A stretch of DNA of 64,000 nt from a virus: the IMG/VR virus record IMGVR_UViG_3300032282_006300, positions 1 through 64,000 of that record. One strand, 5' to 3'. Positions 26,863 to 40,986 of the stretch are shown in pieces. The notes below the pieces were generated by a model. That model had not been told where the DNA came from. It saw nothing but the letters and a program-made list of their open reading frames with translations, and made no database searches. Numbering within the stretch: the stretch's first letter is position 1; the number at the start of each line of letters is the position of its first letter. A program made the translations under genes and the position numbers.

Positions 26863-26876
26863 CCAGATTGTTTGAG

Positions 26877-27161: not shown

Positions 27162-27190
27162 GTCTTGCCCCCTTCGTTGTCGTTGGTACT

Positions 27191-27238
27191 AACTTACACG
27201 CAACGCCGGAGGAGTCAAGCATTTCCACCGGCGTGTCG
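27191..27238 (-). promoter_or_regulatory. CGACACGCCG promoter for 26877-27161
   Basis: CGACACGCCG, 32 nt, TAAGTT. TTGACT lies 16 nt upstream of the -10. CTCCGGCGTTGCG next to the -10 is an imperfect inverted half-site. Confidence 0.75.
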
Positions 27239-27248
27239 CAAGATTGTG

Positions 27249-27521: not shown

Positions 27522-27552
27522 TGTGTTGCTCCCTTTCGTTGTCGTTAGTACT

Positions 27553-27601
27553 AACATACACGCCGGTGGTCACTTTCGCGGTATTGACCACCGGCGTGTC
27601 G
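27553..27601 (-). promoter_or_regulatory. CGACACGCCG promoter with 12-bp dyad for 27249-27521
   Basis: CGACACGCCG, 33 nt, TATGTT. CGCCGGTGGTCA and TGACCACCGGCG pair perfectly, so the motif has an inverted copy just before the -10; no TTGACA-like -35. Confidence 0.72.
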
Positions 27602-27610
27602 CAAGTTATT

Positions 27611-27982
27611 TCAGCCGTAGATTTCCTCACCAAAGATTGCCAACTGAAGCACCGTGGTGGCAACGCAAACATCCCACGACCAGAAGTCGGTGGAGATGGC
27701 ATTGCCACAGCAGGAGTCGCGCAGAGAGCGCGTCAGGGCAATCTGGAAGCCCCTCTCAATGTCAGCAATACCCAAGATGATTTCGCTTGGCTTGCCATCG
27801 TAGAAGTCGTCCTGCTTGTAATAGGTGAACTTGATTTCACCAATGGTTTCCCAATCGGCTTCGCCGAGGTACTCGGCTGAAACGCAGAAGGACTTCATCA
27901 CAGGGTCGCAATCCCAGCCTGAGCCGAAAGTGGCTTCCCATAGAGCCTTGCTGTCCACCTCTACTGCGATTGTCTGGTTCAT
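27611..27982 (-). CDS. Hypothetical protein, 123 aa
   Basis: ATG 27982 with GAGGAGCAAGACA. Sequence has LRDSCCGNAISTDFWSWDVC and an acidic centre; compact alpha/beta. Function unknown. Confidence 0.65.
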   Translation of the reverse strand: MNQTIAVEVDSKALWEATFGSGWDCDPVMKSFCVSAEYLGEADWETIGEIKFTYYKQDDFYDGKPSEIILGIADIERGFQIALTRSLRDSCCGNAISTDFWSWDVCVATTVLQLAIFGEEIYG

Positions 27983-28015
27983 TGTCTTGCTCCTCTCGTT
28001 GTTGTCGTTGGTACT

Positions 28016-28063
28016 AACATACACGAAACGCCGGTGGAAACAAGCATTTCCACCGGCGTGTCG
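28016..28063 (-). promoter_or_regulatory. CGACACGCCG promoter for 27611-27982
   Basis: CGACACGCCG, 32 nt, TATGTT. GCCGGTGGAAA and TTTCCACCGGC form an 11-bp hairpin that may also terminate the upstream gene. Leader ACCAACGACAACGAG is shared with neighbours. Confidence 0.72.
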
Positions 28064-28067
28064 CGGA

Positions 28068-28364
28068 TTATTTCACGCAGTCGGGACAGCCCAACTCGCA
28101 AGGCTCAACTCGTGAGCAAAGGTCTACGACACTCTCCCAGATGTCGCCCCAAAGTTCACCGTCCGTCCTGCTGTAATAGTAATCACGGTAGTGGCTGTCA
28201 CCATAGAAGGTGTAGCCGGTCGGAGGGTCAAGGCTGACATGACCACCGGAGATAACGAGGGTGCAACCTGCTCGCTTCGCGGAGGCGATTGCTTGCGCCT
28301 TCGTTGCCTTGCGGGCGGGCTTGACGGCAAAGAGTTGGTTCAGTCGTTGTTCTAGTTCTAACAT
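28068..28364 (-). CDS. Hypothetical protein, 98 aa
   Basis: ATG 28364 after AAAGGAGCAAGACC. N-terminal helix LELEQRLNQLFAVKPARKAT, SAKRAGCTLVISGGHVS, then Tyr-rich YGDSHYRDYYYSRTDG and CELGCPDC at the end. Function unknown. Confidence 0.62.
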   Translation of the reverse strand: MLELEQRLNQLFAVKPARKATKAQAIASAKRAGCTLVISGGHVSLDPPTGYTFYGDSHYRDYYYSRTDGELWGDIWESVVDLCSRVEPCELGCPDCVK

Positions 28365-28395
28365 GGTCTTGCTCCTTTCGGTTGTCGTTGGTACT

Positions 28396-28443
28396 AACAT
28401 ACACGAGTTTGCCCGAAACCTCGGTATTTCCACCGGCGTGTCG
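28396..28443 (-). promoter_or_regulatory. CGACACGCCG promoter for 28068-28364
   Basis: CGACACGCCG, 32 nt, TATGTT; the spacer shares GAGGTTTCGGGCAAA with the promoter at 28937-28984, suggesting duplication. Confidence 0.72.
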
Positions 28444-28464
28444 CAAACTATTTATTTCACCAAA

Positions 28465-28498
28465 GACCCCTGCCAGACGGGGGATGCTGGCAGGGGTC
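28465..28498 (-). terminator. Hairpin terminator after 28520-28891
   Basis: GACCCCTGCCAG and CTGGCAGGGGTC pair over 12 bp, followed on the minus strand by TTTGGTGAAATAAA. Confidence 0.75.
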
Positions 28499-28519
28499 GG
28501 TCTGGTGTCAGGTCAGGCT

Positions 28520-28891
28520 CTAACCCTCCCTGCTCGTGTCGTTCACATCGTGGCTGTGAAACTCGCCCTCGCTCTGGATTTCAGAAGCCAGCGCGTCCTC
28601 ATCATCAAGGCAGTAGTCGTTGGACTCCACCTCGTACTCAGCCTCGCTCCAATCCAGCCAACGCTCAAGGTTGTCACCGTCACCCTCGCTATCAACGAGG
28701 GTGGTGGCTTCCTGCTCATCAGTAGCCAAGACCAGCAAGGAGAAGGGCACTGTGGCTGTGACCTCCACCGTGAGCGTAATGCCAAACTCGGCAAACTCAA
28801 GTTGAGCGCGGTACTCAGCAGTGCCGGTCACGCGGAACTTGTGGAGTTCTTGCGTGAAAGCAATCTCGTCATTGCTGTCAAAGTAGTTCAT
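28520..28891 (-). CDS. Hypothetical acidic protein, 123 aa
   Basis: Strongly acidic; beta-rich N-terminal half (EFGITLTVEVTATVPFSLLV) then DSEGDGDNLERWLDWSEAEY. ATG with AAGGGGACGACA. Has its own promoter and terminator. Function unknown; an anti-host DNA-mimic role would fit acidity but is speculative. Confidence 0.65.
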   Translation of the reverse strand: MNYFDSNDEIAFTQELHKFRVTGTAEYRAQLEFAEFGITLTVEVTATVPFSLLVLATDEQEATTLVDSEGDGDNLERWLDWSEAEYEVESNDYCLDDEDALASEIQSEGEFHSHDVNDTSREG

Positions 28892-28936
28892 TGTCGTCCC
28901 CTTCTGTCGGTGTAAGCGGTCTTGCTTACAAGGAAT

Positions 28937-28984
28937 ACATTACACACCTTTGCCCGAAACCTCGGCATTTACATCGGCGTGTCG
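28937..28984 (-). promoter_or_regulatory. CGACACGCCG promoter for 28520-28891
   Basis: CGACACGCCG, 32 nt, TAATGT. Confidence 0.68.
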
Positions 28985-29443
28985 CAAGATTTATTTCAGG
29001 GGAGGTAAGAATACCCCTCCCTCCCTACCCTATTTATGGTATCGGCAATCTCGCGCGAAGTCACGCACATCTACCGGCGTGTCGTGAAAAAGTTTATGGA
29101 TTTATCGGCGTGTCGCTACATAACCTGTGCTCAACTCCCCAGATTGCTCTGTATCGCACGAACGCAGGGGGGCTGGTGTGATTGGATAGGGGCAGGGCTA
29201 AGGCTCTCACAGGGGCACACAGGGCTTCTGGTGGGGGTATGCCCCTTGTCAAGCATTGACTCCGGCGTGTCGTGAACTTTCGCCTGAAACGACCAAACCC
29301 CCCTCACGACAATGGGGGGGTCTGGGAGTCGCTGGGGAGGAAAGGAATACTCCTATGCGACTGCCACGCGCTGACAAGGCGCGTGGGGGTGAGCCTAGCC
29401 GGTGAGTCACGGGGGATGGACTCACCGGCTAGGGGCGTGGGGG
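28985..29443. other. Gene-free stretch with promoter-box doublet and non-coding unit A
   Basis: Holds a CGACACGCCG doublet (29075-29084 and 29106-29115, 31 bp apart, AT-rich spacer), a third box at 29263-29272, and between them a 150-bp unit related to 30302-30459 and 36128-36243. No reading frame with an SD. The left box could drive a TACCAT -10 at 29036-29041. Confidence 0.6.
29364..29433 (-). terminator. Strong terminator after 29444-29818
   Basis: CCTAGCCGGTGAGTC (29394-29408) pairs perfectly over 15 bp with 29419-29433; an 8-bp CCACGCGC hairpin (29364-29386) follows on the transcript, and a C6/G6 hairpin near 29303-29328 comes next. Confidence 0.8.
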
Positions 29444-29818
29444 CTACATAGGCTTCACCACGATGTAGTCGGTGGCGGTAGCCAGCATTTCGGCAATCGC
29501 AGGGTACTCAGCCTTCAGGCGAGTGGTGTCAATGCCGGTGCGAGTCCGAGAGCAAGCCATAACCTGAACATAGCCTCCGACTGAACCAGCCTCGTGACCA
29601 TCAAGAAGGGTCAGGATTTGAGCGCGAACCGCCTTTTCCTGAGCCTCAAACAACTTGCTCGCGGTGCGAGCCTCGTTGAGAGCGTTCACCAACTCCAACA
29701 GGTTGGTGTTGTCAAGAGCGATAACATCATCACTCACAGCGGTCGTCTGCTTCACAGCAGGAGCAATACCGACAAGTCGCGCGATTGCGGACTTGGTGAT
29801 TTCGGTCAAAGTAGCCAT
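29444..29818 (-). CDS. Hypothetical helical phage protein, 124 aa
   Basis: Sequence LLELVNALNEARTASKLFEA, AVRAQILTLL, then TGIDTTRLKAEYPAIAEM. This 'long helix plus D-T-x-x-L-K-x-x-x-P-x-I' pattern is common next to YqaJ/RecB-type nuclease genes in actinophages, but no nuclease is near. ATG after AAAGGAACGACA. Function unknown. Confidence 0.65.
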   Translation of the reverse strand: MATLTEITKSAIARLVGIAPAVKQTTAVSDDVIALDNTNLLELVNALNEARTASKLFEAQEKAVRAQILTLLDGHEAGSVGGYVQVMACSRTRTGIDTTRLKAEYPAIAEMLATATDYIVVKPM

Positions 29819-29865
29819 TGTCGTTCCTTTCCTTGTCGTTGTAAGCGGTCTTGCTTACAGGGACT

Positions 29866-29913
29866 AACTTACCGGACACACCGGAGGAGTCAAGCATTTC
29901 CTCCGGCGTGTCG
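29866..29913 (-). promoter_or_regulatory. CGACACGCCG promoter for 29444-29818
   Basis: CGACACGCCG, 32 nt, TAAGTT, with TTGACT 16 nt before the -10 and GGAGGAAA/TGACTCCTCC symmetry. Confidence 0.75.
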
Positions 29914-29918
29914 CGGAT

Positions 29919-30185
29919 TTATTTCGTGTTCAGCGCGTCAAACTGTGCGTGCCACTCAGGGCTTGTCGCCTTGCCACACGAGATAGCAACTTCCAGCACC
30001 GCAATCGCGGTGTCAATAGACATCACCACTTCTTGTGGTGCGTCTGGAGCAGACCACTCGTATAAGTGCCTGTCCTCTCGCGCGATGTGCCAAGACTCGT
30101 ACCGAGCCTGAGCAAGTTCGCCCAGAGCCGAGTCAAGCAGGTTCAGCACGCGAAGCGTGGTTTCCCTTTGCCTTTGGACTGTCAA
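29919..30185 (-). CDS. Hypothetical helical protein, 88 aa
   Basis: Starts with TTG at 30185 (AGGAAAGG upstream; no ATG nearby). Sequence RVLNLLDSALGELAQARYES and VVMSIDTAIAVLEVAISCGK is all-alpha. Function unknown. Confidence 0.6.
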   Translation of the reverse strand: MTVQRQRETTLRVLNLLDSALGELAQARYESWHIAREDRHLYEWSAPDAPQEVVMSIDTAIAVLEVAISCGKATSPEWHAQFDALNTK

Positions 30186-30217
30186 TGTCCTTTCCTTCCT
30201 GTTGAGTTGTTGGTAAT

Positions 30218-30265
30218 AACCTACACGAAACCTCCGACAATGCTGGGATTTCGCTCGGCGTGTCG
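30218..30265 (-). promoter_or_regulatory. CGACACGCCG promoter for 29919-30185
   Basis: CGACACGCCG, 32 nt, TAGGTT. A second box lies upstream at 30302-30311 across an AATAAATAAATAAATC tract. Confidence 0.7.
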
Positions 30266-30301
30266 CAAACTTTATGAGATTTATTTATTTATTGGAGTCA
30301 C

Positions 30302-30459
30302 CGGCGTGTCGCTACACGACCTGTGAGTAAATCCTCCCTAACGGACTTTCAGGCAGGGGGTGGGGTGATTGCCCCTAAACAGGGGGTAAATGGCTTAGAA
30401 CGGCGCACAGGGCTTCTCCGGCGATTTGGCTAAAGTCAAGCATTTGGCTCGGCGTGTCG
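30302..30459 (-). repeat. Non-coding homologous unit B
   Basis: Bounded by CGACACGCCG boxes at both ends. On the minus strand it starts AGAAGCCCTGTGCGCC, contains TTACCCCC and CAATCACCCC, and ends GTGTAGCGACACGCCG, as units A (29106-29272) and C (36128-36243) do. No gene. Confidence 0.6.
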
Positions 30460-30621
30460 GGAACTTTCGTGACAATAGCAACCGCACGACTTGACCTGCC
30501 CTTCGCGCTCGTATGACTCACGACACGCCGAGTGCTGATGTGTCAAGCACCAGCCGAAACTTGTGGTACGGTCGGAGGTGGACTTTGGCTTCGGCTTCGG
30601 CTTCGGCTTTGCCCTAGTCAT
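30436..30621 (-). CDS. Small Cys/His-rich basic protein, 61 aa
   Basis: ATG 30621 has AGGGGGGC upstream. (KP)5 run at the N-terminus, then CLTHQHSAC and CGCYCHESSRH, enough ligands for one zinc site. A copy of the CGACACGCCG core in the opposite sense (30521-30530) lies inside this coding region. The longer upstream frame is made of the AGTCCG repeats and is rejected. Confidence 0.55.
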   Translation of the reverse strand: MTRAKPKPKPKPKSTSDRTTSFGWCLTHQHSACRESYEREGQVKSCGCYCHESSRHAEPNA

Positions 30622-30720
30622 TGGCTTGCCCCCCTGAGCAGGGGCAGAGGTCGCTGGGCGAGTTCGGGAGTCAGCCCCCTGCCGGTGACATAACGGACAT
30701 TTCGGGCATAGCCCGATTTG

Positions 30721-30935
30721 AGTCCGAACTGAAAGTCCGGCGGCGAACTTGCTGGCTGACCCTGAGAGTCCACACAAGGTGTCCCAGCCTGTGATTGTGA
30801 CAAAGACCGGCGACAGTCCGAAGCCCCCTGGAATAGTCCGAACTCAGTCCGGTCATAGTCCCCTAATAGGGTGGTACGCATTAGTCCGAAGTCAGTCCGA
30901 GCATAGTCCCCTATGCTCAGTCCGACCTCAGTCCG
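30721..30935. repeat. AGTCCG iteron-like cluster 1 (9 copies)
   Basis: AGTCCG starts at 30721, 30734, 30815, 30835, 30846, 30883, 30894, 30919 and 30930. Three pairs are exactly 11 bp apart. Same motif as cluster 2 beside the DnaA boxes. Region otherwise gene-free. Confidence 0.7.
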
Positions 30936-30946
30936 GTAGTTCGGCA

Positions 30947-31417
30947 TTACCAACTCGCCCGATACTGAAACTCCCAGCCTTGAGGAGTGTCCTTCAGCAC
31001 ACGCTCTAGTTGCTCAATGGAGTCGTCAATGTCTGACCAATAGGACTCGTCAATCTCGGTTGAGCCGAAGAAGAAGCCAGCGCAAGGAGGCAACAGTTCC
31101 TCAGCGACCTCCTTGCCTCCAGCCTTGACATTGAGGCAGATGGTCAGCAGTTCGCTCAGTTGCTCACGACCGACATACATCTCCTGACATTCGTCAATGC
31201 CTCGCCCACAGTTGTCTACGAACCAGCGATGGATTTGATTTGCCTTGCGCCAATAGCCAACGGACAGGTCAATCTTTGCTGAAGGCACGAAGCCCCCTAC
31301 AAAGTCTTGACCTTTGACGGCCTCCAAGACCGCGCTGAAGGTGTCCTGATTGGCTTGGGACTGATAGATAGACTCGCTGACATACTTAGTCGCGGTCAGG
31401 TATTGGTCTAGACCCAT
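30947..31417 (-). CDS. Conserved phage protein of GLDxYL type, 156 aa
   Basis: ATG 31417 lies 1 nt after the previous stop with GGAGGG upstream. MGLDQYLTATKYV, VGYWRKANQIHRWFVDN, ELLPPCAGFFFGSTEID and YWSDIDDSIEQLERVL define a widespread phage family of unknown function found in many actinophages and enterophages. I know of no assigned activity. Confidence 0.72.
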   Translation of the reverse strand: MGLDQYLTATKYVSESIYQSQANQDTFSAVLEAVKGQDFVGGFVPSAKIDLSVGYWRKANQIHRWFVDNCGRGIDECQEMYVGREQLSELLTICLNVKAGGKEVAEELLPPCAGFFFGSTEIDESYWSDIDDSIEQLERVLKDTPQGWEFQYRASW

Positions 31418-31418
31418 C

Positions 31419-31691
31419 TCAATCACCCTCCTCATCAAGCCACGGTTCTAGGTGGTGTCCATCAACGATTGCCCACGCTGGCGCGCTCATCTCACCGCGA
31501 TACAGAATACCTTCGGGGAGGTCAATGTCTGCCTCGCTGTTGCCCTCGTTCACAGCCTCAATGGCCAGCACGCAAGGCTCAATCATTGTGGCGGGCACAG
31601 GTGGGTAGTGATTGTTGGTGAGGTGGATAGATAGTGCTTGACGCAAGCCAAACATACTCGTGGCTAGGTCTTGTGCGAAGTTGCTTCCCAT
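31419..31691 (-). CDS. Hypothetical protein, 90 aa
   Basis: ATG 31691 after AAGGAACGACA. DLATSMFGLRQALSIHLTNN, then PVPATMIEPCVLAIEAVNEG: alpha-rich with acidic C-terminus WLDEEGD. Co-transcribed with 30947-31417. Function unknown. Confidence 0.62.
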   Translation of the reverse strand: MGSNFAQDLATSMFGLRQALSIHLTNNHYPPVPATMIEPCVLAIEAVNEGNSEADIDLPEGILYRGEMSAPAWAIVDGHHLEPWLDEEGD

Positions 31692-31721
31692 TGTCGTTCC
31701 TTCCTTGTTGTTGGTAGTTCC

Positions 31722-31771
31722 ATTGTGGCACACACCGGAGGTCATTTGGGGGATTGACCTCCGGTGTGTCG
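31722..31771 (-). promoter_or_regulatory. Variant CGACACACCG promoter for 31419-31691
   Basis: CGACACACCG (one change from consensus) then 33-34 nt to CACAAT. CACACCGGAGGTCA pairs with TGACCTCCGGTGTG over 14 bp. Confidence 0.5.
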
Positions 31772-31775
31772 GGAC

Positions 31776-32195
31776 TTATTCCGCAACAGCCAGCAGGATA
31801 AGTCGTTTCACATCACTGCCATAACCGCGCTCCAACATCTGAGCAAACAGTTGCGCGAGCCGGTTGTCCTCATTGTCGCCCTGACTCATCTCAAAGAAGT
31901 GCTGAGATACTTCGGGCAAGCCCCAGCAATGAGCGAGGATACTCGCCACAATCGCAGGGTGGTCGCGCTCACCATCAGGTGCGATGGTTGCGTACTCGTA
32001 GATGAAAGTTCGCAGTTCATACGCACCATCATCACTGCTCAGGGCAAGCCCCAGAACATTGTCGCGCACATACAGGTTGCTGAACGCGCTGGCCAGCATG
32101 GCAAACACTTCAGGCGTGTAGGTGCGTTCATTGTTGTCAATGGCAACAGCGAAGTCCACGACTGCCTGAACCTCTGAGTCGCTGTGGCTAATCAC
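31776..32195 (-). CDS. Hypothetical helical protein, 139 aa
   Basis: GTG start at 32195 overlaps the previous TGA (GTGA). Central part DHPAIVASILAHCWGLPEVS, LAQLFAQMLERGYGSDVKRL is repeat-like alpha, faintly reminiscent of DUF4192 but not enough to call it. Function unknown. Confidence 0.6.
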   Translation of the reverse strand: MISHSDSEVQAVVDFAVAIDNNERTYTPEVFAMLASAFSNLYVRDNVLGLALSSDDGAYELRTFIYEYATIAPDGERDHPAIVASILAHCWGLPEVSQHFFEMSQGDNEDNRLAQLFAQMLERGYGSDVKRLILLAVAE

Positions 32196-32362
32196 ATTGA
32201 CTCCTTAGCAAGTTGGATAGCGCGAACCATACCGCTTGCCCAGCCATCGTTGTATTGGATTTCCTCGTCCTCCAACTCGCCTTCCTCAGCCTCAGCCTTG
32301 TCTAGCGCGGTCGTCTGGTCGTGTTCTGCCTGAAGGACTTTGATGAGTTCCTCAATGGTCAT
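32192..32362 (-). CDS. Small acidic protein, 56 aa
   Basis: MTIEELIKVLQAEHDQTTAL, an acidic run (AEAEEGELEDEEIQ), then GWASGMVRAIQLAKES. Stop overlaps the next start. First gene of a two-gene operon. Function unknown. Confidence 0.6.
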   Translation of the reverse strand: MTIEELIKVLQAEHDQTTALDKAEAEEGELEDEEIQYNDGWASGMVRAIQLAKESM

Positions 32363-32404
32363 TGTCTTGCTTCCTTCCTTGTTGTTGTTGTTGTTGTTGG
32401 TCTT

Positions 32405-32453
32405 ACTATTTCACACACTCTGGTCATTTCGGTGTATTGACCTCGGCGTGTCG
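32405..32453 (-). promoter_or_regulatory. CGACACGCCG promoter for 32192-32362
   Basis: CGACACGCCG, about 33 nt, AATAGT; the -10 is weaker than in sister promoters. Confidence 0.55.
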
Positions 32454-32473
32454 TGGACTTATTTCGGAAGGTG

Positions 32474-32507
32474 TTGCCCCTGCCCAATGGCGGTCAGGCA
32501 GGGGCAA
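32474..32507 (-). terminator. Hairpin terminator after rIIB
   Basis: TTGCCCCTGCC and GGCAGGGGCAA form an 11-bp stem starting 5 nt after the rIIB stop codon. Confidence 0.75.
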
Positions 32508-32511
32508 GTAC

Positions 32512-33348
32512 CTATCCCTCCTCGTAGAAGTCAAACGAGTTCCAAGCCTCGTCCTCGTCCCAATCGTTGTCCCAAGCAGAGCCGTCAGACCCAAGCAAGG
32601 GCACATAGTCAGGGTTGGCAATCTCAGCCAACACTTCATAGCGACAGGTACGCAACTTCTGGAAGTCGCAGTCGCGCGGAACGGATACAACATCGCGAGG
32701 GTTGATTTTCACCTTGACCACGCGAGGTGCGAAGGTGGAGGCGTAGTCCCAAGTGCCAGCGTGGAGTCCGGTAGAACAGCCCTCAAAGGCGTTTGCGTTC
32801 ACGCGATTGCGAGGCATTTCCACGATTGACCCAACAGAGTTCGGGACATTACCGTAGACGGTCTGACCATCTACGATTGCTTCCCCAGAGTGAACCGAGG
32901 TGAGGTCGTCCCTCAGACCCTTGTAGGCGATAAAGTCACCGTCCTCAGTAATGGTGAAGTTCCGGTCGTTGAGCCAAGTGTAAAGTTGCTCACGACTGTT
33001 GCCATTACGGTTCTGGAGTACCTTCTCGTAGAAGTTCACGAGAGGCACGAAATCGTAGATACCCTGCTTCTGAAAGCGCGAGATTTGCGCCGACAAAGAG
33101 TTGTCCACGAGTTCACCATCAACATACACACGACCATCGCTGATTGAGATACGGTCGCTGACCTTCTCAAAGGCTTGTCGTGCTTGCTCGGCTAGGTCAA
33201 ACAAGCCAAACACTTGAGGGTCGTCCTTGATAACTCCCTCAATAATCTGCGCGAACGCAGGGTGATTGTTGGTGGCTGTGTAGACCTTGCCACCTTGTAG
33301 CACCGTAATGGCTGAGCCATTACCTGTGCTGATGAGTTCGTAAAGCAT
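32512..33348 (-). CDS. rIIB: RIIB-like protein
   Basis: 278 aa (T4 RIIB about 310). Motifs of the family: FVPLVNFYEKVLQNRNGNSR, LYTWLNDRNFTITEDGDFIA, YKGLRDD, NAFEGCSTGLHAG, WDYAS, VVKVKINPRDVVSVPRDCDF, KLRTCRYEVLAEI. In T4, RIIA and RIIB together overcome RexAB exclusion and affect lysis timing; their biochemistry is unclear. Directly downstream of rIIA with its own CGACACGCCG promoter and terminator. The acidic C-terminal tail (DNDWDEDEAWNSFDFYEEG) is an addition. Confidence 0.88.
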   Translation of the reverse strand: MLYELISTGNGSAITVLQGGKVYTATNNHPAFAQIIEGVIKDDPQVFGLFDLAEQARQAFEKVSDRISISDGRVYVDGELVDNSLSAQISRFQKQGIYDFVPLVNFYEKVLQNRNGNSREQLYTWLNDRNFTITEDGDFIAYKGLRDDLTSVHSGEAIVDGQTVYGNVPNSVGSIVEMPRNRVNANAFEGCSTGLHAGTWDYASTFAPRVVKVKINPRDVVSVPRDCDFQKLRTCRYEVLAEIANPDYVPLLGSDGSAWDNDWDEDEAWNSFDFYEEG

Positions 33349-33378
33349 TTCGTTTCCTTCCTTGTAGTTGTTAGTTCT

Positions 33379-33427
33379 AACTTACCATCTGGGACTGACA
33401 AACCGTGTATTGACGACCGGCGTGTCG
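33379..33427 (-). promoter_or_regulatory. CGACACGCCG promoter for rIIB
   Basis: CGACACGCCG, 33 nt, TAAGTT. Confidence 0.72.
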
Positions 33428-33442
33428 TGAGAAGTTTCGGCA

Positions 33443-33475
33443 GGGCAGGTCAGGCAGGGAAGCCCTGACCTGCCC
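33443..33475 (-). terminator. Hairpin terminator after rIIA
   Basis: GGGCAGGTCAGG and CCTGACCTGCCC pair over 12 bp, 8 nt past the rIIA stop codon, just before the rIIB promoter. Confidence 0.78.
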
Positions 33476-33482
33476 CTGACCG

Positions 33483-35519
33483 TCACTCGCTGGACTGCTG
33501 ACGCAGGGCATAGGAAGCGTTGAGGTAGATAACAAACTCAGCCCTGACGAGTTCACTATCGGTCACACGACCCAGCCAGATTTCGTTGAGCAGGGGATAA
33601 CTGTGAAGGCTGGTCTTGTAGTCGCTGACCAAAGACTCACCGATAGAGAACGAAAGCGTTCGTGCCAACTTGCGGAACTTGCTCACGACCTCACCGACCT
33701 TCTCATAGCAATCTTTCAGGTCGCGCAGTTCGTCAATGAACTGCTGGTCGTCTACCAATCCCTCTAGCGCGTCAGCGAGTTTGGCTGGCTGACCGAACGA
33801 GTTGTTATTGGAGTTGTAGAGAACAACCTCGCGCGATGTGAACGCTGTCAATGCTTCAGCATAGTCGCGCTTGATTGCTTGTTGGACTGTCAGAGCCAGA
33901 GGGTTCTCTCGCAAGAACTTGTCCTGACGGTTCTTGGCAACTTCCACGACCGCGTAGTTGTCCTCCACAAAATGCTCCACAATACGATTGCGCGAATAGC
34001 CACGGTACTCGTCATTGCTCAGTTCCGTTGGCGAGAAGTAGAGAACCTGCTTGCCAGCAAAGTCAATGCTGTCGGCTGGCATAAGCCCTCCGTTGTTGGT
34101 GACAAGTTCCCAATCCTTAGTGCGTGTTGGGGAGTTCGCGGTGGTCGTTCCAACAGATTGCTTGTGAACTTTGATTGCCTTGATTGTTGAGTAATCAACG
34201 GCAAGAACATTGACCCACTCGCCGACAAAGTTGGTGTCTGCGAATAAGTATTCCGTTGGAGCAGTTTCCAAAGCGAGCGTGTCCACATAAGCGTTCACTC
34301 TCTCAATGGTCGTGGCAGAAGGGTACGACTCACTGCTGTATCCGGTGACAAGAAGTACCTTGCCCAAGTCGCTCGCAATAATAGAACTTTGACGAGAGTT
34401 CTTACGACTACCGTAAGAAGGACTGAGTTGGTGGAGCAGGTAAGAATAACGGAACTGATTGGGCACAGTTTCGCCCCTGAACTCAAACCGCTTGTTGCTG
34501 TCCTCAATGTTGCGCGCAATCGCTCGCCATTGGGTCGCTTCCTCAAAGGCTTCTGCCTTGTTGTTAGCCCTTCCGACATCGGCATAGGCTTTATTGCGTG
34601 CGTTCTTGCGTGCGATGTTCACGAGTTCGGCAAGTCGCTTCTCGGTTCGGTCTGTCAAGTGTAGTTCCTCACGGCTTGGCACGAAGTTGAGTTCGCCCAT
34701 TGGAACTGTGAATACGACAAGGCAATCAAACCAACGGTTGAGTTCGTCTGCGATGTTGCGTGGAGCAGGGTAAGGCACTCCACCCATTACGAAGGTGTGC
34801 GCGCTAATCCTGTCGTCTACCGATTGCGCGCGCCAAGAACTCCAAGCAGGCAGGTTGGTAGCAACAATGGACACATCGTCAGTTCCGACTTCCTTGCCCT
34901 CCACCTTGACATTAGGTTCACCGTCAATCAAGACAGAACCGGACTCCCAGACAGAGAACAGTATCTTAGCCTTGCTTGCGAACTTGTTGTCCGGCTTGGC
35001 TGGGACAGTAATCTTGACTCCGTTGCGTTCGGTCGTGGAGGCGGTGTCCATCACCGACATAGTGCCAGCACCGTCAGTCTTGACTGAGATAAGTACCTCA
35101 GACTTCACACCGTCCTTCACAGCCGTCATAATGAACTGTGAGGCATAGGTCAGGGCAGACTTTGAGCCAAGACCGAGCATACCTGTTTGCTCATTGGACT
35201 CGCGCTTAGTGCTTGCTCCATAGCGTGAGTAGATAGCAGTAATGTCGTCAAGCGACAGCCCTAAGCCAAAGTCCTGAATAGTCAGGAACGGAGAGAGCGT
35301 GTTGGGGAGATTGACCTCAATGGGGGCAGGGTTGCCAGAGGCGATGTGAGAGTCGCGCGCGTTGCTGGAATACTCACGCAAGACTGCCATTTCGGGGTCG
35401 GAGTAGAGGTTGGTCAGAACGCTCATAATGTGAGCGAGCGAGTTCTGGTCAATGCTCATCTCAATGGACTCGCCCTCAAAGGTTGAGGACTTACGAATAC
35501 CTGTCTTTGCTGGTATCAC
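33483..35519 (-). CDS. rIIA: RIIA-like GHKL ATPase
   Basis: GTG 35519 (GAAGGGAA upstream) is chosen because ATG 35576 coincides with the -10 of the CGACACGCCG promoter. The 678-aa protein has the GHKL ATP-binding motifs: REYSSNARDSH (N box, about residues 48-58), DFGLGLS (G1, about 84-90) and GMLGLGSKSALTYA (G2, about 113). T4 RIIA, a membrane-associated partner of RIIB, has this fold at its N-terminus. The pair is a classical phage anti-exclusion module; here the defence system is unknown. Confidence 0.88.
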   Translation of the reverse strand: MIPAKTGIRKSSTFEGESIEMSIDQNSLAHIMSVLTNLYSDPEMAVLREYSSNARDSHIASGNPAPIEVNLPNTLSPFLTIQDFGLGLSLDDITAIYSRYGASTKRESNEQTGMLGLGSKSALTYASQFIMTAVKDGVKSEVLISVKTDGAGTMSVMDTASTTERNGVKITVPAKPDNKFASKAKILFSVWESGSVLIDGEPNVKVEGKEVGTDDVSIVATNLPAWSSWRAQSVDDRISAHTFVMGGVPYPAPRNIADELNRWFDCLVVFTVPMGELNFVPSREELHLTDRTEKRLAELVNIARKNARNKAYADVGRANNKAEAFEEATQWRAIARNIEDSNKRFEFRGETVPNQFRYSYLLHQLSPSYGSRKNSRQSSIIASDLGKVLLVTGYSSESYPSATTIERVNAYVDTLALETAPTEYLFADTNFVGEWVNVLAVDYSTIKAIKVHKQSVGTTTANSPTRTKDWELVTNNGGLMPADSIDFAGKQVLYFSPTELSNDEYRGYSRNRIVEHFVEDNYAVVEVAKNRQDKFLRENPLALTVQQAIKRDYAEALTAFTSREVVLYNSNNNSFGQPAKLADALEGLVDDQQFIDELRDLKDCYEKVGEVVSKFRKLARTLSFSIGESLVSDYKTSLHSYPLLNEIWLGRVTDSELVRAEFVIYLNASYALRQQSSE

Positions 35520-35572
35520 TTTGGAACTTCCCTTCGGTTGTTGTTGGTGACGGTCATCACCTTGTGCCCTAA

Positions 35573-35621
35573 TCATTACACGACAAACGCCGATACTCGT
35601 GGATTGAGTACCGGCGTGTCG
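35573..35621 (-). promoter_or_regulatory. CGACACGCCG promoter for rIIA
   Basis: CGACACGCCG, 33 nt, TAATGA. An inverted half-site CGGCGTTTGTCG lies next to the -10. The leader ACCGTCACCAACAACAACC precedes the GAAGGGAA SD. Confidence 0.72.
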
Positions 35622-35630
35622 CGGATTATT

Positions 35631-35993
35631 TCAGAACGAGTAGGTATTGACCTTCTCAACCGATTTCATACGAGCCTTCAGCACCTTCTCGTACTCCGAA
35701 CGCTCGTGATACACATAGCCACAGGAGTTGCCTGTGCCAACGAAGTAGAAGATTGTGGTGAAGCAGTTGTAAGGGTCACAGGCGTTGTCCATCTTCCACC
35801 TCAGACCCCCCATGTCGTCTACCCAAACATCGTCAATCGGGATACCGCAGGAGAAGTGATACACCTTCGCCAGATAGTCCTTCTTGACCCACCCTTTCGG
35901 GTTGAGCAGTCGCGCAGTCTTGGAGGCTTCCGTCAGGCTGGTGTTCTTTCCCCAGCGACCGTTTCCACCAATGACGACATAGAAATCAGACAT
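35631..35993 (-). CDS. Hypothetical Cys-containing protein, 120 aa
   Basis: MSDFYVVIGGNGRWGKNTSL, YHFSCGIPIDDVWVDDMGGL, FYFVGTGNSCGYVYHERSEY: beta-rich with aromatic residues. First gene after the origin region. Function unknown. Confidence 0.65.
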   Translation of the reverse strand: MSDFYVVIGGNGRWGKNTSLTEASKTARLLNPKGWVKKDYLAKVYHFSCGIPIDDVWVDDMGGLRWKMDNACDPYNCFTTIFYFVGTGNSCGYVYHERSEYEKVLKARMKSVEKVNTYSF

Positions 35994-36041
35994 ACAATCA
36001 TCTCCCCTGTTGAGTTATGCCAGCACTTGCTGACAAGAACT

Positions 36042-36093
36042 AACTTAGCACCTCAGACCCCCGAAACCGTGTATTGACCGCTTCGGCGTGTCG
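36042..36093 (-). promoter_or_regulatory. CGACACGCCG promoter for 35631-35993
   Basis: CGACACGCCG, 36 nt, TAAGTT; a second box lies upstream at 36128-36137. Confidence 0.6.
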
Positions 36094-36127
36094 CCGGAAT
36101 AGAGATTTCCAACTATTTCCAAACTCT

Positions 36128-36243
36128 CGGCGTGTCGCTACAAGGGCTGTATGTAAATGCTCTGTAATCGCCTGAAACGATGTGGTTGGTATGGTTGGGT
36201 GGATACGGGGGGTAAGTGGCTCAAATCGCCTCCTACGGCTTCT
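36128..36243 (-). repeat. Non-coding homologous unit C
   Basis: Minus strand starts AGAAGCCGTAGG, has TTACCCCCCGT and ends TTGTAGCGACACGCCG; related to units A and B. No gene. Confidence 0.55.
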
Positions 36244-36318
36244 AAAGACCATTGTCCCACATTGTTCCACTATGTCCGATTTGCTCTGCTCTGTTGAGTT
36301 ATGGCTTTCGCTACCTCA

Positions 36319-36398
36319 AGCATAGCATCACTTGACCCAAAATCTTGGTATTGACTCTCGGCGTGTCGTGAAAAGATTTATTTATTTTCGGCGTGTCG
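36319..36398 (-). promoter_or_regulatory. Orphan CGACACGCCG doublet and -10 upstream of unit C
   Basis: Boxes at 36389-36398 and 36359-36368 (30 bp apart, AT-rich spacer), then 34 nt to TATGCT at 36319-36324. No gene follows, so a transcript would cover unit C. Confidence 0.5.
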
Positions 36399-36721
36399 GT
36401 ACTTGATTTCGCGCCTCAAAAGAGTAAAGTTGAGTTTGGTGCCCAAAAACATTTATTCGTACAGGTGTTCTAATCCAACGACACTCTGTTGCCTCGGTTC
36501 CCTAACTCACCAGCCTAATGCCAAATGGGGCACTTGTCAAAGACCGACACGCGGTTTGGTAGGTGTTTATCATCACACTCAAATCGGCGTGTCTTGCCAA
36601 GATTTCAGGTATGGTTCGGCTATGGTGGTCGTGCCCACGAGCATAACCTACCTTACTTGACATAATGTGTATTATCGGCGTGAGCCACTACGAGTAGGAG
36701 GTCTAGGCACAAATGCCCTTC

Positions 36722-36790
36722 AGAAGCCCTGTAAGGCTCGCTGAGGGACTTACCCTCCTTCTGTAGGCAATCACCCTAGCCCTTACCTGT
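36722..36790 (+). repeat. Inverted related copy D of the non-coding unit
   Basis: Plus strand AGAAGCCCTGTAAGGC, then CTTACCCTCC and GGCAATCACCCTAGCCC repeat the order of units A-C in the opposite direction, 35 bp before the first DnaA box. Confidence 0.5.
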
Positions 36791-36824
36791 TAGGCGCTCA
36801 TGAAGCCATACAGAGCCTCCAAAT

Positions 36825-36951
36825 CTATCCACAGACCTCACGCCTGTATCCACAGGTTATCCACAGGTCGCAAGTTATCCACAGGTTATCCACAAGGTTG
36901 TCCACATTGTGGATAAAATCTGTGGATAACTTGTCCACAGCCTGTGGATAG
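36825..36951. other. Candidate replication origin: DnaA-box cluster
   Basis: Within 127 bp: exact TTATCCACA at 36857, 36875 and 36886; exact inverse TGTGGATAA at 36908 and 36921; one-mismatch boxes at 36825 (CTATCCACA), 36846 (GTATCCACA), 36898 and 36931 (TTGTCCACA) and inverse TGTGGATAG at 36943. This density is that of chromosomal or plasmid oriC. Flanked by AGTCCG iterons at 37057-37275. No dnaA gene is seen, so host DnaA would be used. Confidence 0.8.
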
Positions 36952-37424
36952 TGCCTGTCCGTTATGTCCGATTTGCCAGACACGGGGGGTCTCAGCGCCA
37001 GCCAGACCCGCGGGGAGCCATACCATACCCCTACCCCCGCCGCGCGCGTGGACCATAGTCCGGTCCAGTCCGGTCCGTGAGCATGAGCATGACCGGTGTC
37101 AGTGAGCATGACCGAGTCCGGTGTCAGGGCTATAGTCCGATTTCAGTCCGGCGGTTCCCAAAAATAGTCCGAACTTAGTCCGAAGATCAGTCCGAAGCAT
37201 TTTTAAATAGTCCGGACCCATACATGTAAAAAGTCCTCGGCACATCTAGTCCGAAAATAGTCCGGCCATAGTCCGACACAAGTACGCTCGCGTGACGCTC
37301 GCAACTTAATTCAACTTGTTCTCGCCGCCGACTCTTCTTGCACAGCGAACGTGTCCGTAGGCACAAAAAGATGGTAGAAAGTGGTAGAAAGTGGTGCATG
37401 GTGGGGCTTTGTGGGACTTTGCTA
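36952..37424. other. Gene-free GC-rich tract and iteron field next to the DnaA boxes
   Basis: A GC-rich part (CCCCGCCGCGCGCGTGG near 37040) is followed by AGTCCG repeats, then repeats GGTAGAAAGTGGTAGAAAGTGG-like around 37372-37394. No supported gene. Confidence 0.55.
37057..37275. repeat. AGTCCG iteron-like cluster 2 (12 copies)
   Basis: AGTCCG starts at 37057, 37067, 37115, 37134, 37145, 37166, 37177, 37189, 37209, 37248, 37259 and 37270. Most spacings are 10-12 or about 20 bp, one or two helical turns, so one DNA face is presented. Located next to the DnaA boxes. Confidence 0.72.
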
Positions 37425-37586
37425 TTAGATATCTGTTAGTGAACTATTGTCCCTATTCGCACGCTTGATTGTAAACGGTACGGGTAATCTTCCAAACACT
37501 ATCGTCCACATGAACGCTACTATGATGTCCATGAGGATATGATCAGGGTCAGATATGTTTTCTAGGAATTGTTCTTTACTGATCAT
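37425..37586 (-). CDS. Possible small membrane protein, 53 aa
   Basis: ATG 37586 overlaps the end of 37576-38235 by 11 nt; no clear SD, so it would rely on coupling. One hydrophobic segment (ILMDIIVAFMWTIVF). Last frame before the origin region; may be fortuitous. Confidence 0.4.
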   Translation of the reverse strand: MISKEQFLENISDPDHILMDIIVAFMWTIVFGRLPVPFTIKRANRDNSSLTDI

Positions 37587-38235
37587 AGGACTGATCGTAG
37601 GTGGGATCGTCTTTGATCTCCCGATAGATTCTTTGGTAATCCATCTTTTCTTTGTAATGTTTTTCACACTGGGGTTGTGTTTGACCACTTGTTGTTACAT
37701 AGTCTGCGAATCTTTTCTCAGGACATTGTGAGCATTTTGTTTGGCTCAATAGTTCACTGGCGACTTTTACGGCGATCCGCGGGGTCTTCCCCTGATATTT
37801 CCCTTCAAGGATCCCGTGTTCGCGCACATGCTCGCGGGCGCGGTTGATCGTATCCTCGTTGGGGTCTTCATGTTCTTCGGGGTCTTGATCAGTCCGTGAC
37901 CAGTCCGCGTGATTAGTCTTGTCCGGGTCGATGCCCTTGTAGGGCAAGGGGTGCTTTCCAGCAGAGTCATAAGCATGCGTGTCGTCGTGCGCGAAGTAGT
38001 GCGATGGGACCTCCATCTTGTCGCCATCGCTGTCTGTCAAGACCCACCCCATCGCCCCGAAACGAAGAGAAGGCTTCTCGCGGATCAGTGCGTGAGCGTA
38101 TTCAAGGCAATTGCCGTGCTGCCAGTCGCGCCAGCCGTGGAGGTTGTATCCTCGCTCTTGGTAGTCCTTCTCCCATTCCGCAGTTTCTAGGCTGTCTTCA
38201 TTGTTTTCAGCGACTTTGTACCATAGGTTAGCCAT
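37576..38235 (-). CDS. WYKVA-tagged papain-fold-like protein, 219 aa
   Basis: Starts MANLWYKVAENN, the tag shared by four more proteins upstream. The body has a plausible Cys-His-Asp set: C43 (HGNCLEYAHALIREKP), H79 (VPSHYFAHDD), D90 (HAYDSAGKHPL), as in papain-like phage effector proteins where the last motif is 'Y/L-D-x-x-G'. A C-terminal zinc site follows (KCSQCPEKRF, QCEKHY), preceded by RIAVKVASELL, a second tag-like peptide. GGAGAAC upstream of ATG. Substrate unknown; the tag suggests delivery or packaging (inference). Confidence 0.65.
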   Translation of the reverse strand: MANLWYKVAENNEDSLETAEWEKDYQERGYNLHGWRDWQHGNCLEYAHALIREKPSLRFGAMGWVLTDSDGDKMEVPSHYFAHDDTHAYDSAGKHPLPYKGIDPDKTNHADWSRTDQDPEEHEDPNEDTINRAREHVREHGILEGKYQGKTPRIAVKVASELLSQTKCSQCPEKRFADYVTTSGQTQPQCEKHYKEKMDYQRIYREIKDDPTYDQSYDQ

Positions 38236-38277
38236 TATTGTTCTCCGTTATATTGAAAATACACAAGTAAAATTGCT

Positions 38278-39000
38278 TTAAAATTTCCATCCGACGTCTT
38301 GTCCAACGTAAGGGCTTGGACTTAAATGATGATTAATCCGGTTTTTAATACAACTAGAGGCATCTGGATCTAAACAACCATTTTTTTCTGCAAGCGTTCC
38401 ATCAAAAAGACCATTGTAAAGATTTCCACAACGAAGGCATTCATGTTCCCAACCATAATGTGTTTGTACGGGAATATGAAGCGAACTTTTCCAACCCTGT
38501 GATATTGTGCTTTTTAATTCAAAATGCGATCCTGTTTCGGGATCCTTTTCGGATCCGTTGGACCTTAAAGGAGATTGTTGCGCTTCTGCTCCATGTAACC
38601 ATGAACCTAAACCTTGTGTATGTAGATACATGGCTGGTCCAGAATTGTCGTGTTTTAAAATTCCACAATTTATGCCAACTAGGCCACCGTCACCATAAAT
38701 ACCATGTTTTCCGTATATAATCCTATTGTCGTTATGATTATATACGGAACCTTCTTTAAGAATATCTGATACATGTTTTTCGCAATGGTGACAATAATCT
38801 GTTCTGTCATCCATCAATGTGCTTAAATTTTCGCCTTTTAATGTTTCGAAACCTTTATGTATATGGCTCAAATATAAAGAAGGGTTATAAATATGGCGCA
38901 AAGCGGGCGCATTGTGAAACCTACCAATTGCTGGGTTATTATTAAGTTCAGAAACCCAACTTGGTGTATCTGAAGCGACTTTGTACCATAAATTACTCAT
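38278..39000 (-). CDS. WYKVA-tagged zinc protein, 240 aa
   Basis: Start taken at ATG 39000 (MSNLWYKVASD), which overlaps the upstream stop as TAATG; the longer frame to 39048 lies inside the neighbour. Cys/His pairs: YCHHCEKHVSDIL near residue 67 and HECLRCGNLY near 193, then CLDPDASSC. Body unlike its paralogues apart from the tag. Function unknown. Confidence 0.65.
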   Translation of the reverse strand: MSNLWYKVASDTPSWVSELNNNPAIGRFHNAPALRHIYNPSLYLSHIHKGFETLKGENLSTLMDDRTDYCHHCEKHVSDILKEGSVYNHNDNRIIYGKHGIYGDGGLVGINCGILKHDNSGPAMYLHTQGLGSWLHGAEAQQSPLRSNGSEKDPETGSHFELKSTISQGWKSSLHIPVQTHYGWEHECLRCGNLYNGLFDGTLAEKNGCLDPDASSCIKNRINHHLSPSPYVGQDVGWKF

Positions 39001-39692
39001 TATTGCTCCTCGCCTTTGAAAAGATATAAACCATTCTTTTGGCGCCATTCTGCTTCTGATCCTAGAAGGGTCTCTAGATCTCCTGCGGTACCATAGGCTT
39101 TTGCTTGTTCGTCAGAAATGTGACCCCCGGGCCAAAGGTCTTTATGGTGAACATAATCTCGGGTTTCCTCTAAAGTATCTTTAAAAGCATGTGGGGTGAA
39201 TATGTCATGTGCAATACAAGAATCAGGATGCCCCGTCGCTTTTACCATTTTTAATTTGTGTTCTTGGCATTCTTTTTGTGAATGTGGTCTGGCGGGCAAT
39301 ATGCTTCCCATAACACAAGTAGGACATTCAACGCCATTTATGTTATTTTTTCTTAATTCTTGAAAAGAAATGGGTTTTTCAATTGATCCACCACGTGAAT
39401 GTTTTAGAAATTTTTCTTTACATTCGTCTCTATTGCAAATAAAAAATTCATGACCAGACCCATTTTTTGCTACGTGGGCAATTTTATCTTGAGGGCTTCT
39501 CAAATGTGAAATATTTTCCCAATATTTATTTGCATATATTGTACGTTGTTTAGTATTTAATTCTCCAGCAACATCAAAAAATTTAAATTTACCTTCAATA
39601 GGAGCAGGTTCATTATCTTCGGGCACCCTTAACCAGTCTGGTTCTCTCATATGGTCACCATAATCAGCAACTTTGTACCATAGGTTACTCAT
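39000..39692 (-). CDS. WYKVA-tagged array paralogue, 230 aa
   Basis: Starts MSNLWYKVADYGD. Contains the shared core: ISFQELR, then CPTC, then ILPARPHSQKEC, and C-terminal HISDEQAKAYGTAGDLETLL. Additional Cys sites (CNRDECKEKF). Start overlaps the previous gene's end by ATGA order at the 39689 junction. The conserved PxRPHSxxEC motif is probably part of a zinc site. Function unknown; no known family recognised. Confidence 0.68.
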   Translation of the reverse strand: MSNLWYKVADYGDHMREPDWLRVPEDNEPAPIEGKFKFFDVAGELNTKQRTIYANKYWENISHLRSPQDKIAHVAKNGSGHEFFICNRDECKEKFLKHSRGGSIEKPISFQELRKNNINGVECPTCVMGSILPARPHSQKECQEHKLKMVKATGHPDSCIAHDIFTPHAFKDTLEETRDYVHHKDLWPGGHISDEQAKAYGTAGDLETLLGSEAEWRQKNGLYLFKGEEQ

Positions 39693-40414
39693 GATTTATT
39701 TCTCCCACCTAAATTGATGGGCAGATTGTTTTTTACACGGTATTCTGCTTCTGATCCTAGAAGTACTTCTAGGTCTCCTGAAGTACCATAGGCTTTTACC
39801 TGTTCATCTGTAATGTGACCTTGTGGAAAAGCATGTTTGGGGTCAAAACCTCCGTGGTTAATGCATGATCCCTCATACGAACCATGTTGGCATTTATGGA
39901 AATAAATTCCTTCTGGTCTAAGTTGACAAGTGGCCAAACAGTTTCCTTTTTTTTGTGGCCTACCATTAGGTTTACATTCTTTTTCCGAATGTGGTCTTGA
40001 AGGTAAAATTGTGGTTGCGCAATTAAGACACTGAGGAAAAATATTATCCGCTCCTGCTTTATAAATTGGGCTGTAGTCGTTGTTTTGTTCTTGTCTTAAT
40101 TCTTGAAAAGAAACAGGTTTTAAATTGCTATATTTTAAACCACTTACCTTGTCTCTAAAATCATTTTTTTCTACTTCTGGCAAACATGTTCTGTGAATCA
40201 ACGCTTTATAAGGAAAATGACTATCTTTAATATCGGCCGAATATGCAACTGTATTATCTCGACCCATTGATGATAGATTTTTCCAATAGTTTTCATGATG
40301 TTTTTCAGCATCAGTACGGTTGTATTTTAATAAAACCCAAAGATTGGGGTCTAATTGTTGATGCCTACCGCTTAAATTAGAATATTCAGCGACTTTGTAC
40401 CAGAGGTTAGCCAT
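39689..40414 (-). CDS. WYKVA-tagged array paralogue, 241 aa
   Basis: Starts MANLWYKVAEYSN. Same core: VSFQELR, CLNC, ILPSRPHSEKEC, and HITDEQVKAYGTSGDLEVLL, with an extra Cys-rich insert (CLATCQLRPEGIYFHKCQHG). Nearest relative is 39000-39692. TAATG overlap with the gene upstream. Function unknown. Confidence 0.68.
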   Translation of the reverse strand: MANLWYKVAEYSNLSGRHQQLDPNLWVLLKYNRTDAEKHHENYWKNLSSMGRDNTVAYSADIKDSHFPYKALIHRTCLPEVEKNDFRDKVSGLKYSNLKPVSFQELRQEQNNDYSPIYKAGADNIFPQCLNCATTILPSRPHSEKECKPNGRPQKKGNCLATCQLRPEGIYFHKCQHGSYEGSCINHGGFDPKHAFPQGHITDEQVKAYGTSGDLEVLLGSEAEYRVKNNLPINLGGRNKS

Positions 40415-40986
40415 TAGAAAACCCTGCCCTTGGGTTCAATATTTTCACGGGCCTGTATTTCATGTTCTTTTGCTAGGTATACTTCGGCGTCTCCGGATAC
40501 CCCTAAATGATCGGTAATATCTGGTGAATTTTCAGGCAAATGGTTTTTGCATTGAGTTGTCCATCCATCTGGATGCGATTCAAGTTCGCATTCTGATTTT
40601 TTATGTGGTCGGCCTTTAAGAATTGGCTGATAACATTCTGAGCACTGAGTTGTATGGGGTGTACTTTTTCTTACATCAGCAAAAGATAAGGATTTTTTTT
40701 CATCTTCATAAAGCCAATTAGATGTGTCACACTGAGGGTGAAAAAAATTACCACGAAATGTTTTAGCAAAAGGTTGTTTCGGATTTTGTACCCAACTATC
40801 TAAATTTGAATAATAATTGTCCATACCTTCGGCATTGAGAGGGGCAATACGACCTTTTTCCCCTTTCCAAAGAGCGGGAAATTCTTCATCATGACTATCT
40901 CCCTGAACGTGGGGGTGCGGTGACCAATATTGAAACCCGTCAAGAAACGGGCTGATTTCACTGGTTTTGTACCATAAATTACTCAT
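40414..40986 (-). CDS. WYKT-tagged array paralogue, 190 aa
   Basis: Starts MSNLWYKTSEIS, a variant tag. Core: LSFADVR, CSECYQPILKGRPHKKSEC, then DITDHLGVSGDAEVYL. Overlaps its upstream neighbour by ATGA. Function unknown. Confidence 0.66.
   Translation of the reverse strand: MSNLWYKTSEISPFLDGFQYWSPHPHVQGDSHDEEFPALWKGEKGRIAPLNAEGMDNYYSNLDSWVQNPKQPFAKTFRGNFFHPQCDTSNWLYEDEKKSLSFADVRKSTPHTTQCSECYQPILKGRPHKKSECELESHPDGWTTQCKNHLPENSPDITDHLGVSGDAEVYLAKEHEIQARENIEPKGRVF

What the first reader, a model, noticed from the sequence alone, without database searches (positions are those of the whole stretch)
36825..36951. oriC-like DnaA-box cluster in a phage genome
Ten boxes in 127 bp, five of them perfect TTATCCACA/TGTGGATAA in both orientations. 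Phages rarely carry such a cluster. It lies in the largest gene-free region of the window and is bordered by iterons. It suggests host-DnaA-dependent replication, possibly plasmid-like maintenance, or titration of DnaA to shut down host replication.
Basis: partly seen in the sequence, partly recalled or inferred. Interest (0 to 1): 0.78.

Follow-up and report, generated by a model that had tools for sequence, protein, structure and literature searches.

The report
Host DnaA-binding array in a phage
A large virulent-type phage of (probably) actinobacteria carries ten tightly packed copies of the site that the bacterial replication starter DnaA binds; similar arrays turn up in many unrelated phages, some inside their genome ends, which suggests that phages repeatedly capture or soak up the host's DnaA.

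Summary
In detail: ten DnaA boxes (TTATCCACA, at most one mismatch; five perfect, two more TTGTCCACA) lie in 127 bp at 36825-36951. Shuffled sequence gives 2-3 per 200 bp at most. Boxes sit mostly one helical turn apart, and the box-2-box-3-box core has exactly the spacing found in Nocardiopsis chromosomal oriC. The 123.8-kb phage encodes a DnaE-type polymerase, DnaB-like helicase, primase and SSB; I saw no DnaA among the genes annotated. "Phages rarely carry such a cluster" is wrong as a general statement: box pairs or triples occur in at least 119 viral contigs per scan (reversed control 0), in T7-like phages INSIDE the direct terminal repeats (phiEap-1, VB_Ship_A7, Kp7), and in Streptomyces Stanwilliamsviridae, where boxes are conserved better than flanks. 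I found no paper describing this. Host-DnaA binding is very likely (about 0.85, inferred). What it does is open: the array lacks an AT-rich unwinding element, has no GC-skew extremum, and is absent from the nearest sequenced relatives (portal 60-63% identical, 67% GC). I favour recruitment of host DnaA for phage replication (0.42), with a DnaA decoy as close rival (0.30).

The parts
36825..36951 (.). DnaA-box array: ten 9-mers TTATCCACA with at most one mismatch, + + + + + + - - + -
36857..36865 (+). perfect DnaA box
36875..36883 (+). perfect DnaA box
36886..36894 (+). perfect DnaA box; with 36875 and 36898 forms the box-2-box-3-box core also found in Nocardiopsis oriC
36898..36906 (+). DnaA box TTGTCCACA (actinobacterial form)
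   Evidence: actinobacterial preference is from general knowledge
36908..36916 (-). perfect DnaA box
36921..36929 (-). perfect DnaA box
36931..36939 (+). DnaA box TTGTCCACA
36857..36950 (.). long imperfect inverted repeat centred near 36901, built from opposed boxes and matching spacers
35994..37575 (.). gene-poor stretch between flanking leftward genes 35631-35993 and 37576-38235; holds the largest ORF-free gap (36271-36824)
36952..37080 (.). GC-rich right flank (about 62-72% GC), the opposite of a DNA unwinding element
37057..37275 (+).
36084..36593 (+). five copies of CGGCGTGTC, part of a family of 22 confined to 26.8-36.6 kb, mostly between genes

Best explanation
The array is a landing platform for the host initiator DnaA. 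Host DnaA binds the consensus boxes cooperatively (one helical turn apart, both orientations) and forms an orisome-like complex on phage DNA. Most likely this helps to start phage replication: the phage brings its own DnaB-like helicase, primase, SSB and DnaE-type polymerase, no phage initiator was recognised, so host DnaA would mark the start site and help load a helicase (host or phage) at this non-coding spot upstream of the leftward block of small genes. Shown: boxes, density, spacing, inverted repeat, recurrence in other phages, sequence constraint in Streptomyces phages. Inferred: DnaA binding itself, helicase loading, origin activity, and the host.
For: Ten boxes, far above chance. Helical spacing, a general trait of phage arrays: 260 of 374 neighbour spacings between perfect boxes fall at 10-13 or 21-24 bp, 70% against 38% if even (spacings inside the search pattern are included, but its gap was free from 0 to 20). 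The core spacing TTATCCACA-2-TTATCCACA-3-TTGTCCACA occurs in 16 bacterial contigs, two of them Nocardiopsis with a DnaA gene beside it, one verified with dnaA and dnaN on either side, i.e. oriC. The phage encodes polymerase, SSB, primase and DnaB-like helicase. Cultured Streptomyces phages conserve a box module: across Peebs, Tribute, LilMartin and Mildred21, 22 of 27 box columns are invariant against 178 of 424 others, Fisher p = 8e-5. Environmental Stanwilliamsviridae-like phages with a related polymerase (35-38%) carry 3-9 boxes in gene-poor, AT-rich gaps.
Against: No AT-rich unwinding element within 250 bp (maximum 68% AT in 40 bp, reached by 73% of comparable stretches; right flank 69% GC). 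No skew extremum at 36.8 kb. The nearest relatives, which carry a related polymerase (49-59% identical), lack the array, so such a replisome works without it. In T7-like phages arrays sit in the terminal repeats although T7 replication is not known to need DnaA (general knowledge), so an array need not be an origin. No binding or replication data.
Confidence: 0.42

Rival explanations
1. DnaA decoy: the array soaks up host DnaA, so that the host chromosome stops initiating (and DnaA-controlled host genes change) while the phage uses its own replisome. The effect grows with phage copy number: 100 copies would offer about 1000 boxes.
For: Most boxes are consensus, so they should bind DnaA tightly without the weak graded sites typical of regulated origins; no unwinding element; the phage has its own replisome; arrays lie inside the direct terminal repeats of T7-like phages: 5 boxes in 195 bp (phiEap-1), 8 in 177 bp (VB_Ship_A7), 7 in 238 bp (Kp7), each present at both ends, where an origin role is unlikely.
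Against: A decoy would not need tight phasing or a fixed place, yet spacing is constrained and a box module is conserved at one place in Streptomyces phages, often with only three boxes, few for a sink.
Confidence: 0.3
2. Regulatory site: DnaA bound here controls promoters at the head of the leftward small-gene block (RIIA/RIIB and others, 26-36 kb), tying early expression to host DnaA level.
For: The array lies about 0.8 kb upstream of the first leftward gene of a block with its own composition (about 50-59% GC) and repeated CGGCGTGTC elements; DnaA is a known transcription factor (general knowledge).
Against: Promoter-like hits here are weak and not clearly above shuffles (6 found, 3.1 +/- 1.4 expected); ten boxes are more than known DnaA-regulated promoters use (general knowledge).
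Confidence: 0.12
3. Terminus element: the array marks or serves a genome end (concatemer junction or packaging site), for example by giving a DnaA-started synthesis that duplicates the terminal repeat.
For: Arrays inside the terminal repeats of three T7-like phage groups; in Streptomyces phage Peebs the three boxes lie 50 bp outside the start of the right terminal repeat (121976); Arthrobacter phages Faja and Seahorse have boxes 49-101 bp from the record end; in a group of contigs the array lies about 1-1.5 kb 5' of the terminase large subunit.
Against: Genome ends of this phage are unknown, and its terminase gene is 29 kb away. In BillNye and Forrest the boxes are about 7 kb from the record end with no terminal repeat found next to them.
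Confidence: 0.08
4. The 9-mers are sites for a phage protein and resemble DnaA boxes by accident.
For: The phage has other unexplained repeat arrays (AGTCCG, CGGCGTGTC).
Against: The exact consensus, including the actinobacterial TTGTCCACA variant, recurs in phages of Escherichia, Klebsiella, Vibrio, Arthrobacter and Streptomyces, with a core spacing shared with a true oriC.
Confidence: 0.05

Closest known systems
Bacterial chromosomal oriC (for example Nocardiopsis, loci L280 and L276)
   Same: Dense DnaA boxes in both orientations; identical box-2-box-3-box core spacing
   Different: No dnaA or dnaN next to it, no AT-rich unwinding element, shorter and with a higher share of consensus boxes
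DnaA-titrating or DnaA-controlling loci (E. coli datA, DARS; general knowledge)
   Same: Cluster of strong boxes outside the origin
   Different: On a phage; IHF/Fis context not testable; datA is far less dense
DnaA boxes in plasmid and plasmid-phage origins (P1 oriR, F, pSC101, R6K; general knowledge)
   Same: Host DnaA sites beside short repeats on a mobile replicon
   Different: No Rep gene recognised next to it; boxes outnumber those of such origins
DnaA-box groups in Streptomyces Stanwilliamsviridae (Peebs, Samisti12, BillNye, Forrest; this work)
   Same: Phage-borne perfect boxes in ++- arrangement, spacing about 12 and 23; gene-poor region of a 127-135-kb actinophage
   Different: Usually three boxes; no statement about them found in the papers searched
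DnaA-box arrays in direct terminal repeats of Autographiviridae (phiEap-1, VB_Ship_A7, Kp7; this work)
   Same: Five to eight boxes, mostly about one or two helical turns apart
   Different: All boxes in one orientation, inside the terminal repeat, in phages with a T7-type replisome

Membership tests
Bacterial-type oriC | Cluster of DnaA boxes above chance | tested here: met
Bacterial-type oriC | Adjacent AT-rich DNA unwinding element | tested here: not met
Bacterial-type oriC | GC-skew extremum at the site | tested here: not met
   weak test, since nearly all genes lie on one strand
Bacterial-type oriC | Autonomous replication or marker-frequency peak | not testable with these tools
   needs reads or experiment
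Iteron plasmid origin | Rep initiator gene next to iterons | tested here: inconclusive
   neighbours 35631-35993 and 37576-38235 match no Pfam, PHROGs or NCBIfam family
Iteron plasmid origin | Iterons specific to the origin | tested here: not met
   AGTCCG array occurs again at 30721-30935
DnaA titration locus (datA-like) | High-affinity DnaA-box cluster away from a functional origin | tested here: inconclusive
   cluster met; whether it is an origin is unknown
DnaA titration locus (datA-like) | Lowers free DnaA or host initiation | not testable with these tools
   experiment
Stanwilliamsviridae-type DnaA-box module | Two direct boxes about 12-13 bp apart and a third inverted about 23-24 bp on | tested here: met
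   36886/36898/36921: spacing 12 and 23, same ++- orientation, with one TTGTCCACA box
Stanwilliamsviridae-type DnaA-box module | Conserved position in the lineage | tested here: inconclusive
   shared flanking genes in G006, G003, G087, but one of them is common in phages without arrays

The most novel reading that the evidence does not exclude
Capturing host DnaA through phased box arrays is a widespread, repeatedly evolved phage strategy, with arrays placed at functionally special spots (terminal repeats, terminal-repeat borders, early-block boundaries), so that incoming or replicating phage DNA takes over the host's master initiator.
Probability: 0.3. Interest if true: 0.8.

Novelty: new variant of a known kind. 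Interest (0 to 1): 0.62.

Why it matters
DnaA is the master switch of bacterial replication. Phage proteins aimed at host replication are known, but DNA-borne arrays that would hijack or soak up DnaA in virulent phages do not appear in the papers I could search. Several carriers are cultured, tractable phages (phiEap-1, Kp7, Streptomyces Peebs, Arthrobacter Seahorse), so the question is directly testable.

Tried and rejected
Chance cluster: rejected. Host oriC fragments misbinned as virus: none of 40 array-bearing records, mostly longer contigs, encodes a DnaA C-terminal domain while the control rang in 10 of 14 genomes; 20 of the 50 array-bearing records tested besides this one match a terminase profile. 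Plasmid kinship: the 141-bp array region finds no good plasmid match. Looking for near relatives by RIIA failed. Portal relatives (13 loci) lack boxes. Gene 31419-31745 as a marker of a conserved array locus: weakened, because 80 relatives chosen by this gene alone showed only 1 locus with 3 or more perfect boxes in 200 bp and 11 with 2 or more (shuffles 0 and 0); those with 2 or more include 7 of the 8 contigs of at least 60 kb. T7 RNA polymerase profile among the records: uninformative, control silent. AT-rich flank test on 26 other phage arrays: mixed, median p 0.145. Terminal-repeat border rule for all Streptomyces phages: fails for BillNye and Forrest. T7 itself has no boxes in its first 1500 bp. 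Thirteen Glycomyces hits of the genome scan carry boxes but no DnaA-like gene was seen nearby with a simple motif search. Literature: searches gave nothing on phage DnaA-box arrays beyond a software-predicted origin with DnaA boxes in Pseudomonas phage PseuGes_254 (PMC11512268) and a single site in a PM2-like prophage (PMC1950889).

Full report
Observation. Ten DnaA boxes lie at 36825-36951, five perfect. The window is bases 1-64000 of a 123,830-bp virus record; the remaining 59.8 kb were read as L002-L004. Outside the array only two perfect boxes exist. Shuffles give at most 2-3 boxes per 200 bp. Distances between boxes are 21, 11, 18, 11, 12, 10, 13, 10, 12 bp, so most lie one helical turn apart. 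The array is also an imperfect inverted repeat whose spacers match beyond the boxes.

The phage. Nearly all larger genes run leftward. It encodes RIIA and RIIB just left of the array, a portal, a terminase, a DnaE-type polymerase, SSB, primase, DnaB-like helicase and ribonucleotide reductase. Nearest named relatives by protein are actinobacteriophages: polymerase about 30-33% identical to Mycobacterium, Rhodococcus and Gordonia phages, portal 44% to Rhodococcus phage E3 and about 41% to cluster-C-like mycobacteriophages. An actinobacterial host is therefore likely but not shown; at 46% GC the phage differs from those relatives. IMG/VR relatives with 60-63% portal identity are 66-71% GC and contain no TTATCCACA and at most two isolated TTGTCCACA. 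At that GC the absence of single boxes is unremarkable; the absence of a cluster is informative.

Is it oriC-like? Density and spacing are. The core TTATCCACA-2-TTATCCACA-3-TTGTCCACA was found in 16 bacterial contigs; in Nocardiopsis L280 it lies between dnaN and dnaA, and in Nocardiopsis L276 a DnaA-like gene lies beside it. An unwinding element is missing: the right flank is 69% GC over 100 bp and the best 40-bp stretch within 250 bp is 68% AT, which most comparable stretches reach. Detrended GC skew peaks near 64 kb and bottoms near 93 kb, not at 36.8 kb, although skew is a poor test with one-sided gene orientation.

Is it rare in phages? No. Forty array-bearing records were searched and none encodes a DnaA C-terminal domain. 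Among annotated phages, arrays occur in Berlinvirus P483 and VB_Ship_A7 (8 boxes each), nasanit (6), phiEap-1 (5), Kp7 (7), Klebsiella S16a (6), Vibrio BD5 (6), Arthrobacter Seahorse (4) and Streptomyces Stanwilliamsviridae (3). In phiEap-1, VB_Ship_A7 and Kp7 the array lies inside the direct terminal repeat (195, 177 and 238 bp) and so occurs at both ends. In Streptomyces phage Peebs the boxes end 50 bp before the right terminal repeat, which equals the left end of the record. In Faja and Seahorse boxes lie within about 100 bp of the record end. The rule is not general: in BillNye and Forrest no terminal-repeat border was found near the boxes.

Constraint. In four Samistivirus relatives (Peebs, Tribute, LilMartin, Mildred21) box columns are invariant in 22 of 27 cases against 178 of 424 elsewhere (p = 8e-5). 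This rests on one small alignment, two rows of which are close relatives. Spacings in viral arrays cluster at 10-13 and 21-24 bp (70% against 38% if even). Both point to a protein that binds as an oligomer on one DNA face; DnaA is the obvious candidate.

Kin of the locus. Environmental phages G006, G003 and G087 (95-112 kb, terminase of G006 62% identical to Streptomyces phages, polymerases 35-38% identical to ours) carry 9, 3 and 3 boxes in gene-poor gaps at the border between a rightward and a leftward gene block. Genes shared with our phage flank the array there too, on the same two sides, and the block on one side contains a gene that lies in the terminal repeat of Peebs. By analogy the 26-37 kb block of our phage, which has distinct GC content and its own CGGCGTGTC elements, could be a terminal repeat or early block with the array at its edge. 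This is conjecture: one flanking gene proved common in phages without arrays.

Verdict. DnaA binding is very likely (about 0.85) from the exact consensus, spacing, recurrence and constraint. The use is unsettled: origin-type recruitment (0.42), decoy (0.30), transcriptional control (0.12), terminus role (0.08), a phage protein's sites (0.05). The finding matters less as one oddity than as the entry to a recurrent and, in the papers searched, undescribed class of phage DNA element.

Noticed in passing
window 37576-40986 (minus strand): Five consecutive genes start with nearly the same peptide M(A/S)NLWYK(V/T)(A/S) although the rest of each protein differs: possibly a shared N-terminal targeting tag.
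   Followed up: partly
window 26853-36593: 22 copies of CGGCGTGTC, nearly all on the + strand and mostly between genes, confined to this block of about 50-59% GC; looks like a repeated upstream control element.
   Followed up: partly
window 30721-30935 and 37057-37275: Two arrays of AGTCCG (9 and 12 copies), often 10-12 bp apart: likely sites of an unknown phage protein.
   Followed up: no
record ends (window 1-100 and L004 end): Both ends of the record consist of the same tandem repeat (CCGGTTAGACCAGTAGCACCGGTTTGACCGTTATTA), so the contig probably breaks inside a repeat of a repetitive (collagen-like?) gene and may be circular.
   Followed up: no
L275 6735-6810 and 12 other Glycomyces loci: Glycomyces genomes carry a cluster of about six DnaA boxes with no DnaA-like gene seen nearby, a possible chromosomal DnaA-titration locus.
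   Followed up: no
L034, L011, L087, L090, L103, L109 and others: Viral contigs with 7-12 boxes placed about 1-1.5 kb 5' of the terminase large subunit, mostly pointing against it.
   Followed up: partly
L256 and L266 (Streptomyces phages BillNye, Forrest): A lone perfect box lies exactly 255 bp from the three-box module in both phages.
   Followed up: no
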